55,255 nt of DNA from Bacteroidota bacterium (GTDB taxonomy: Bacteria; Bacteroidota; Bacteroidia; Palsa-965): assembly GCA_013298545.1 (NCBI GenBank), contig JAAFIA010000013.1, positions 1 through 55,255 on the forward strand, given 5' to 3'. The notes beneath the pieces are model-generated. The model was given only the letters and a program-made list of their open reading frames with translations. It did not search any database and was not told the DNA's origin. Both the position numbers and the translations under genes were made by a program. How positions within the stretch are numbered: position 1 is the stretch's first letter; each line of letters starts with the position of its first letter. Shown here piece by piece: positions 54,471 to 55,255 of the stretch.

Positions 54471-54510
54471 AAAAAGAGGCTGCTCTCGACTTTTGAGACA
54501 GCCTCTTTTT
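54471..54510. terminator. Bidirectional intrinsic terminator ending the propeller gene and array
   Basis: AAAAAGAGGCTG (54471-54482) pairs with CAGCCTCTTTTT (54499-54510). An inner TCTC/GAGA stem is offset by one bulged base. It terminates the plus-strand propeller gene and, in the opposite direction, the minus-strand repeat array. The hairpin sequence differs from the one at 54859 although both occupy the same place in the unit. Confidence 0.85.
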
Positions 54511-54571
54511 CGCTCCCCCTCCTGGACTCGAACCAGCTCCGATAGTTATCGGAGCCATGATTAAGAGTCTC
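54511..54571 (-). pseudogene. tRNA-Asn-like 3' fragment, unit 1
   Basis: On the minus strand the fragment reads from an anticodon-loop-like CTCTTAA through an interrupted variable region to a T-arm, CTGGTTCGAGTCCAG, and an acceptor strand AGGGGGA followed by discriminator G. This matches the 3' half of a tRNA-Asn from this phylum. There is no D arm or 5' acceptor half, and the variable loop is replaced by a hairpin (arms GCTCCGAT/ATCGGAGC). It begins directly at the stop codon of the GIY-YIG gene and cannot be a functional tRNA. Confidence 0.65.
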
Positions 54572-54851
54572 AATATTTTAAGAGAAGTTTTTCATTCATC
54601 TCAGGATATTTTTTCAGGTTACGGATGTAAGTTGCACTTTTCATTTTTTTGATGTGAGACTCGATCCTCATCGCTTGCTTTTTTGACACACACAAAATCG
54701 TATGGAATAAACCCCAATCATCTGCTTTTGCCGTGTATTTATGCGCTTCTGCATTTGCATGAAATTCTAAACGCTCGACAAGATTCCCACTCATTCCCGT
54801 ATAGAAACGATTCAATTTTTCAGAATAAAGGATATATACAACGTATTGCAT
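54570..54851 (-). CDS. GIY-YIG nuclease-domain protein, copy 1
   Basis: This 93-residue protein consists of a single GIY-YIG domain: MQYVVYILYSEKLNRFYTGMSGNLVERLEFH. Its VYILYS and FYTGMS segments correspond to the GIY and YIG strands, with R in VERLEFH as the conserved arginine. SKKQAMRIESHIKKMKSATYIRNL holds the glutamate-containing catalytic helix. Such single-domain proteins cut DNA as mobile or repair nucleases. The ATG at 54851 lies 4 bases after a terminator's T-run, so no separate promoter is apparent. The TGA stop touches the tRNA-like fragment. The second copy encodes an identical product. Confidence 0.88.
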   Translation of the reverse strand: MQYVVYILYSEKLNRFYTGMSGNLVERLEFHANAEAHKYTAKADDWGLFHTILCVSKKQAMRIESHIKKMKSATYIRNLKKYPEMNEKLLLKY

Positions 54852-54858
54852 GGCTAAA

Positions 54859-54892
54859 AAAAAGTCCCGAAACATGCGTTTCGGGACTTTTT
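54859..54892. terminator. Intrinsic terminator between array units
   Basis: AAAAAGTCCCGAAAC (54859-54873) pairs perfectly with GTTTCGGGACTTTTT (54878-54892) around an ATGC loop. On the minus strand it follows the unit-2 tRNA fragment and precedes the copy-1 ATG at 54851 after 4 bases. Confidence 0.88.
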
Positions 54893-54953
54893 CGCTCCCC
54901 CTCCTGGACTCGAACCAGCTCCGATAGCTATCGGAGCCATGATTAAGAGTCTC
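54893..54953 (-). pseudogene. tRNA-Asn-like 3' fragment with perfect 20-bp palindrome, unit 2
   Basis: It matches unit 1 except C instead of T at 54928, which makes positions 54918-54937 a perfect 20-bp palindrome, GCTCCGATAG followed by CTATCGGAGC. The T-arm TTCGAGT loop and AGGGGGA acceptor strand are intact. The 5' half of the tRNA is missing. Confidence 0.65.
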
Positions 54954-55233
54954 AATATTTTAAGAGAAGTTTTTCATTCATCTCAGGATATTTTTTCAGG
55001 TTACGGATGTAAGTTGCACTTTTCATTTTTTTGATGTGAGACTCGATCCTCATCGCTTGCTTTTTTGACACACACAAAATCGTATGGAATAAACCCCAAT
55101 CATCTGCTTTTGCCGTGTATTTATGCGCTTCTGCATTTGCATGAAATTCTAAACGCTCGACAAGATTCCCACTCATTCCCGTATAGAAACGATTCAATTT
55201 TTCAGAATAAAGGATATATACAACGTATTGCAT
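54952..55233 (-). CDS. GIY-YIG nuclease-domain protein, copy 2
   Basis: This 93-residue product is identical to copy 1, with the same GIY-YIG features (VYILYS, FYTGMS, R-x-E helix). The identical coding DNA indicates a recent duplication or continuing homogenisation by gene conversion. It ends at the TGA touching the unit-2 tRNA fragment. Its start at 55233 is followed by AAAAAAAAGTCCCGAAAC, the left arm of another terminator, cut by the window edge. Confidence 0.88.
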   Translation of the reverse strand: MQYVVYILYSEKLNRFYTGMSGNLVERLEFHANAEAHKYTAKADDWGLFHTILCVSKKQAMRIESHIKKMKSATYIRNLKKYPEMNEKLLLKY

Positions 55234-55240
55234 GGCTAAA

Positions 55241-55255
55241 AAAAAGTCCCGAAAC
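55241..55255. terminator. Left arm of a third terminator hairpin, cut by the window end
   Basis: AAAAAGTCCCGAAAC is identical to the left arm at 54859-54873, and the spacing from the copy-2 ATG is the same. It shows that at least one more unit boundary lies beyond the window. Confidence 0.7.

What the first reader, a model, noticed from the sequence alone, without database searches (positions are those of the whole stretch)
54511..55255. Tandem array of GIY-YIG genes each joined to a tRNA 3' half and terminator
Two 382-bp units carry identical 93-residue GIY-YIG nuclease genes whose stop codon abuts the 3' half of a tRNA-Asn-like gene, followed by an intrinsic terminator. The next nuclease ATG comes 4 bases after the terminator, and the array continues beyond the window. 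I interpret each unit as the footprint of an insertion that split a tRNA near its anticodon loop and regenerated the 3' half, with a small homing-type nuclease as cargo. I know of no described element with exactly this layout, though small GIY-YIG genes near tRNA genes do occur in Bacteroidota.
Basis: partly seen in the sequence, partly recalled or inferred. Interest (0 to 1): 0.85.

Follow-up and report, generated by a model that had tools for sequence, protein, structure and literature searches.

The report
tRNA-bound nuclease cassettes with palindrome scars
Many Bacteroidota carry tiny nuclease genes, often in tandem, lodged directly behind a tRNA gene and followed by a broken copy of that same tRNA in which a short palindrome replaces one segment; this looks like a widespread, apparently undescribed mobile gene that invades tRNA genes while keeping the tRNA working.

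Summary
The window ends at a 10-N scaffold gap. Beyond it is a third, cut GIY-YIG copy, then an intact tRNA-Asn(GTT), so transcription order is tRNA, terminator, nuclease, tRNA 3' remnant, terminator, nuclease, remnant, different terminator. This is one case of a general system. Of 173 distinct related nuclease clusters in Bacteroidota, 126 sit behind a same-strand tRNA (median 50 nt), 17 before one, and 1 has an opposite-strand tRNA. Of those 143, 130 carry a degenerate copy of the same tRNA, and most copies hold a palindrome (typically TCC...GGA, 15-20 nt) at isotype-specific tRNA positions. Nuclease clades follow tRNA isotype across host families (50 changes on the tree, 97 when shuffled). 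The window's nuclease clade nearly always goes with the palindrome core GATAGCTATC. An empty locus and nuclease-free tandem units occur in congeners. I found no description of this. Best reading: tRNA-specific homing-type cassettes that regenerate the tRNA and displace its old end, like mitochondrial endonuclease elements with duplicated gene ends. Cutting and mobility are inferred. How the regenerated tRNA escapes self-cleavage, and what the palindrome does, are open.

The parts
54952..55233 (-). GIY-YIG nuclease gene, copy B (93 aa)
   Evidence: ORF; Pfam PF01541; catalytic-type residues Y6, Y17, G19, R27, H31, E64, K68 invariant in 18 homologues
54894..54951 (-). tRNA-Asn 3' remnant after copy B (tRNA positions 31-75), holding a palindrome
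54918..54937 (.). 20-nt palindrome GCTCCGATAGCTATCGGAGC replacing the variable-loop segment of the remnant
54859..54892 (-). intrinsic terminator between remnant B and copy A; the ATG of copy A follows its T-run by 4 nt
   Evidence: 15-bp arms, 4-nt loop
54570..54851 (-). GIY-YIG nuclease gene, copy A (93 aa, identical to copy B)
54512..54569 (-). tRNA-Asn 3' remnant after copy A
54536..54555 (.). palindrome in remnant A, GCTCCGATAGTTATCGGAGC (one change from perfect)
54471..54510 (-). last terminator, different in sequence from the internal ones; read as the native tRNA terminator displaced by the cassettes
   Evidence: 12-bp arms
55234..55255 (-). start of the next terminator; the window ends here at a 10-N gap. 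Beyond it (C35:55263-55487): partial copy C, terminator and intact tRNA-Asn(GTT)

Best explanation
A tRNA-specific, homing-type mobile cassette without an intron. Shown by sequence: a ~90-aa GIY-YIG gene lies directly downstream of an intact tRNA, usually starting at or near the T-run of its terminator, and is followed by a degenerate copy of the same tRNA. In that copy a short palindrome replaces a segment whose position is typical for the isotype. Units are often tandem. Nuclease clades follow tRNA isotype across host families. Inferred: the nuclease cuts the uninterrupted tRNA gene in or near that segment. Break repair copies in the unit, which brings a new tRNA 3' part (so the tRNA stays functional), usually a terminator, and the nuclease gene, and displaces the old 3' end as the remnant. 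The nuclease is transcribed from the tRNA promoter, often by terminator read-through. The palindrome marks the junction and probably makes the remnant uncuttable or is bound by the nuclease. Repeated events or unequal recombination give tandem arrays; loss of the gene gives nuclease-free units.
For: 126/173 distinct clusters have a same-strand tRNA upstream, 17 downstream only, 1 on the opposite strand. 130/143 carry a degenerate copy of the same tRNA. Palindrome positions are isotype-specific, e.g. Met 37/48, Val 28/46, Ala 27/45, Lys 25/43, Asp 50/59. Isotype changes on the nuclease tree: 50, against 97 shuffled (min 90) and, for rows with a known family, 48 against 83 shuffled within host family (min 76). 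In the sampled sequences the putative catalytic residues are invariant. The same tRNA-Asn/pfkB locus is empty in congener G003, and G004 and G006 have nuclease-free units. In at least 20 loci both the intact tRNA and the last remnant are followed by terminator-like sequence that differs, as displacement of the native end predicts. No intron by Rfam. Same logic as mitochondrial mobile-ORF elements, one with a GIY-YIG enzyme in atp9 (PMC3630166).
Against: The regenerated tRNA should still be a target, and I found no consistent change that would protect it. In 57 of 99 loci both terminators match, which tandem duplication explains as well. Tandem units without a nuclease exist. No cleavage or mobility data. 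The nuclease tree is poorly resolved (81 columns, 76 of 159 forks open). Many host genomes are draft assemblies or MAGs.
Confidence: 0.6

Rival explanations
1. Tandem duplication with a passenger: tRNA genes of Bacteroidota duplicate locally, the spare copies decay and collect common intergenic palindromes, and a selfish or useful GIY-YIG gene only rides on the strong tRNA promoter.
For: 57 of 99 loci have the same terminator after the intact tRNA and after the last remnant. Nuclease-free tandem units exist (L127, L129, L022, L024). The palindrome TCCCGATAGCTATCGGGA also occurs away from tRNAs.
Against: Palindromes sit at fixed, isotype-specific positions with different inner sequences but conserved ends and pairing. 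Nuclease clade follows tRNA isotype even within host families. In at least 20 loci the last terminator is a different one.
Confidence: 0.2
2. Nuclease-palindrome partnership: the GIY-YIG protein acts on the palindrome itself (hairpin or cruciform) and mobilises or amplifies it, much as RAYT transposases do for REP elements; tRNA loci are only its home.
For: The window's nuclease clade carries the palindrome core GATAnnTATC in 21 of 23 remnant-bearing loci, against 4 of 101 others; the 4 exceptions belong to the same clade as drawn. Genomes with this clade carry TCCCGATAGCTATCGGGA far more often: 8/10 against 14/285 and 11/11 against 24/106, mostly away from the nuclease locus.
Against: Other clades have many different inner palindrome sequences. 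Several genomes carry many palindromes but no nuclease of this clade (e.g. G110, G388). No HUH/Y1 transposase is present.
Confidence: 0.13
3. Host-useful module: the nuclease or the tRNA-like remnant protects or regulates the tRNA locus, for example against integrases that target tRNA genes.
For: Wide distribution (181 of 296 Bacteroidota genomes) and conserved active-site residues.
Against: Patchy within one genus, with empty, nuclease-free and array states. Degenerate copies in the window's own genome. Sequence-identical tandem amplification looks selfish. No match to a known defence family.
Confidence: 0.05
4. Assembly artefact: the tandem copies are collapsed or misjoined repeats.
For: The window ends at a scaffold gap inside the array.
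Against: Arrays of 3 to 10 copies occur in single-contig or long-contig genomes (G331, G397, G291, G237, G117), and the isolate Pseudochryseolinea flava has two (L066).
Confidence: 0.02

Closest known systems
Mobile-ORF endonuclease elements with duplicated gene 3' ends in fungal mitochondria (Allomyces atp6; Glomus atp6, atp9, cox2, nad3; PMC3630166)
   Same: Intron-less endonuclease ORF (GIY-YIG in Glomus atp9) between a regenerated gene 3' end and the displaced native 3' end.
   Different: Here the targets are bacterial tRNA genes of many isotypes. Units are tandem, the displaced copy carries a palindrome, and the regenerated end is not visibly foreign.
Freestanding GIY-YIG homing endonucleases of phages (Seg family of T4, some next to tRNA genes; from general knowledge)
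   Same: Small intron-less GIY-YIG genes; some lie in a tRNA cluster.
   Different: Not known to me to regenerate a tRNA or to have a palindrome-marked tRNA copy. The window protein has no match in the phage collection or in PHROGs.
REP/REPIN-RAYT systems (PMC3116915, PMC3733652; abstracts only)
   Same: Short palindromic repeats co-distributed with a single nuclease-like protein, plus non-autonomous copies.
   Different: RAYTs are HUH tyrosine transposases, not GIY-YIG; REPs are not described as sitting inside tRNA copies.
Palindromic elements inserted in genes (Rickettsia palindromic elements; double-hairpin elements of fungal mtDNA; from general knowledge)
   Same: Hairpin DNA inserted into structured genes.
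   Different: Not known to be tied to a nuclease gene or to fixed tRNA positions.
Integrative elements in tRNA genes (prophages, ICEs)
   Same: The tRNA is restored on one side and a 3' fragment remains on the other.
   Different: No integrase. The unit is about 0.3-0.45 kb with one gene, and the remnant carries a palindrome.

Membership tests
GIY-YIG superfamily | GIY-YIG catalytic domain with its Tyr, Tyr, Arg and Glu residues | tested here: met
   Pfam 5.6e-12; Y6, Y17, R27, E64 invariant in 18 homologues
Freestanding homing endonuclease | encoded outside an intron, beside or inside its target gene | tested here: met
   no intron family in Rfam; tRNA linkage 143/173
Freestanding homing endonuclease | occupied and empty alleles of one locus | tested here: met
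   tRNA-Asn/pfkB locus: array in G000, empty in G003
Freestanding homing endonuclease | cuts the allele that lacks the element | not testable with these tools
   needs biochemistry
Freestanding homing endonuclease | insertion makes the occupied allele resistant | tested here: inconclusive
   the remnant is interrupted by a palindrome, but the intact tRNA remains uninterrupted
Mobile-ORF element with duplicated 3' end | displaced native 3' end downstream of the nuclease ORF | tested here: met
   3' remnants in 111 of 126 upstream-tRNA loci; different last terminator in at least 20 loci
Mobile-ORF element with duplicated 3' end | imported 3' end differs from the native one | tested here: not met
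   remnant and intact tRNA 3' ends are usually identical
REP/RAYT | HUH tyrosine transposase | tested here: not met
   the protein is GIY-YIG
REP/RAYT | palindromes dispersed in the genome | tested here: met
tRNA-integrating element | site-specific recombinase | tested here: not met
   the only gene in the ~380-bp unit is the GIY-YIG gene
Group I intron with GIY-YIG gene | intron RNA fold | tested here: not met
   only the intact tRNAs matched in four loci
Known anti-phage defence family | match to a PADLOC model | tested here: not met

The most novel reading that the evidence does not exclude
A new class of bacterial mobile element in which each GIY-YIG nuclease lineage is paired with one tRNA isotype and with its own palindrome. 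The nuclease breaks the tRNA gene and the cassette supplies a replacement tRNA end, while the palindrome permanently kills the displaced copy. Losing the cassette by recombination between the copies would then leave a dead tRNA, so the element is both a natural cleave-and-rescue homing drive and addictive.
Probability: 0.3. Interest if true: 0.95.

Novelty: new variant of a known kind. Interest (0 to 1): 0.85.

Why it matters
If right, about 60% of sampled Bacteroidota genomes carry a family of minimal one-gene parasites of essential tRNA genes that had gone unnoticed, probably because the genes are annotated only as small GIY-YIG proteins and the tRNA remnants not at all. It would give a bacterial counterpart of mitochondrial end-replacing homing elements, a naturally varied set of tRNA-gene-specific nucleases whose targets can be read from their neighbours, a possible origin for a common Bacteroidota palindromic repeat, and an explanation for assembly breaks and tRNA pseudogenes at these loci.

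Tried and rejected
Intron: rejected, no intron family in Rfam. Phage origin: no match in the phage collection or PHROGs. Known defence gene: none. Palindrome confined to tRNAs: true in the window's own genome, but in other genomes most sampled sites are intergenic or, in places, coding, some inside hairpins. Terminator test as proof of insertion: mixed, 57 same and 42 different. Literature: no paper found in the held library for tRNA pseudogenes with GIY-YIG, for palindromic repeats with GIY-YIG in Bacteroidetes, or for the palindrome sequence; subscription journals are not covered. Covariation test uses palindromes chosen by a hairpin scan and is partly circular; the check by flanking anchors gave 53 of 107 extracted inserts with stems of 5 bp or more in exact register, against 10% for mixed halves; several others are palindromes shifted by one base. 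No structure prediction was run, since the domain is clear from sequence.

Full report
CHECK OF THE OBSERVATION. The finding is correct, but all its features lie on the minus strand. Two 382-bp units encode identical 93-aa proteins at 54570-54851 and 54952-55233. The protein is a GIY-YIG nuclease (Pfam E=5.6e-12; nearest solved chain 1zg2, UPF0213, E=1e-4). Each stop codon abuts tRNA-Asn positions 31-75, followed by an intrinsic terminator, with the next ATG 4 nt after its T-run.

BEYOND THE WINDOW. The window ends exactly at a 10-N scaffold gap. After it come the first part of a third nuclease copy, the same terminator and an intact tRNA-Asn(GTT). In the direction of transcription the order is: tRNA, terminator, nuclease, [gap], nuclease, remnant, terminator, nuclease, remnant, a different terminator. 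Copy number here is thus at least three and not fixed by the assembly.

A GENERAL PATTERN. The window's genome has two more, degenerate, GIY-YIG genes directly behind tRNA-Val and tRNA-Leu. In relatives and across the phylum the same nuclease family was found in 181 of 296 genomes. I fetched 183 loci and took 173 distinct nuclease clusters. 126 have a tRNA upstream on the same strand within 260 nt (median 50 nt to the start of the nuclease domain), 17 have one only downstream, and 1 cluster has one on the opposite strand; 14 of the 30 without a tRNA lie near contig ends. The tRNAs include Asn, Met, Asp, Val, Ala, Gly, Leu, Phe, Pro, Lys, Ser, Arg and Thr. 51 clusters hold two or more copies; spacing is typically 300-460 bp and copies are often identical. 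Arrays occur in single-contig genomes, and ten copies with a 457-bp period lie in a 994-kb contig. One locus from another phylum, a Falkowbacteria MAG, shows tRNA-Asp, nuclease and a palindrome-bearing tRNA-Asp copy (L073).

REMNANTS AND PALINDROMES. 130 of the 143 tRNA-linked clusters carry a degenerate copy of that same tRNA: 114 on the 3' side, 45 on the 5' side, some on both. 171 of 187 remnants contain a hairpin of at least 6 bp, against 40 of 123 intact tRNAs. The palindromes are mostly 15-20 nt, usually begin TCC and end GGA, and replace a segment at positions that depend on the isotype: Met 37/48, Val 28/46, Ala 27/45, Lys 25/43, Pro 28/46, Asp 50/59, Gly 25/34 and 48/57, Asn 25/36 or the D- or T-loop. 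In many clades the inner sequence varies while pairing is kept (the test is partly circular because hairpins were selected).

NUCLEASE, tRNA AND PALINDROME GO TOGETHER. On a tree of 163 nucleases, tRNA isotype changes 50 times, against 97 for shuffled labels (minimum 90). For rows with a known host family it changes 48 times, against 83 when shuffled within families (minimum 76). Clades for Met, Val, Pro, Ser, Ala and Asn each span several host families. The window's clade carries the palindrome core GATAnnTATC in 21 of 23 remnant-bearing loci, against 4 of 101 others; those 4 fall inside the same clade as drawn. Genomes with nucleases close to the window's carry TCCCGATAGCTATCGGGA far more often than others: 8 of 10 against 14 of 285 in the phylum sample, and 11 of 11 against 24 of 106 in the relatives sample; one genome is in both samples. 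Relatedness of hosts may contribute to this.

STATES OF ONE LOCUS. At the tRNA-Asn/pfkB locus, congener G003 is empty (tRNA and terminator only), G004 and G006 carry 105-110-bp units of palindrome, tRNA 3' end and terminator without a nuclease, and the window's genome has the array. In G006 and in the window the last terminator differs from the internal ones. Over 99 loci the terminator after the last remnant matches that of the intact tRNA in 57 and differs in 42; in at least 20 of the latter both look like terminators. Displacement of a native end explains the different ones; local duplication or same-species homing explains the matching ones.

MECHANISM. The best-supported reading is a homing-type cassette that enters a tRNA gene, restores it with its own 3' part and pushes the old end downstream. 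Architecture, isotype specificity, allele states and conserved putative active-site residues are shown; cutting, repair-driven copying and the role of the palindrome are inferred. In 87 of 111 close upstream-tRNA loci a run of five or more T lies between tRNA and nuclease, and in a few the ATG starts at the end of the tRNA, so transcription from the tRNA promoter, often through a terminator, is likely. The main weakness is that the restored tRNA should remain a target.

RELATION TO KNOWN SYSTEMS. The nearest described case is the mobile-ORF element of fungal mitochondria with a duplicated gene end, one of which uses a GIY-YIG enzyme (PMC3630166). It differs in target, tandem layout and palindromes. 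It is not a RAYT, an integrase element, an intron or a known defence gene. Searches of the held literature found no description; subscription papers are not covered.

VERDICT. A real, widespread and apparently undescribed association, most likely a new variant of homing element; interest 0.85.

Noticed in passing
L022 (G000:C77:19717-19857) and L024 (G000:C100:90492): 5' partial copies of tRNA-Leu(TAG) (twice in tandem) and tRNA-Leu(TAA) with TCCCGATAGYTATCGGGA inside, directly upstream of the intact tRNA and without any nuclease gene.
   Followed up: partly
L098, L101, L105, L113: Away from tRNAs, TCCCGATAGCTATCGGGA often sits between inverted repeats, as if it had entered the loop of an existing hairpin or terminator.
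   Followed up: no
L111 (G013:C24:41143-41308): 74-bp tandem repeats of a tRNA-Val-like 5' part with the palindrome in the D-loop.
   Followed up: no
L045 (G110:C12): Between two identical tRNA-Val genes lie two nuclease copies and several partial tRNA copies whose anticodon arms match the neighbouring tRNA-Lys, a mixed tRNA remnant.
   Followed up: no
L073 2710-3300 (Falkowbacteria MAG): The same layout (tRNA-Asp, nuclease, palindrome-bearing tRNA-Asp copy) outside Bacteroidota.
   Followed up: partly
L088 2129-2431 and L076: In several units the nuclease reading frame runs into the tRNA remnant and palindrome, so the protein's C-terminus is translated tRNA sequence.
   Followed up: partly
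L129 (G006:C6:231670): Longer palindromic repeats (TCCCGATCGCAGCGAAGCGGGGTATCGGGA) with tRNA-Asn 3' ends in tandem, plus a similar palindrome unit downstream without tRNA sequence.
   Followed up: no
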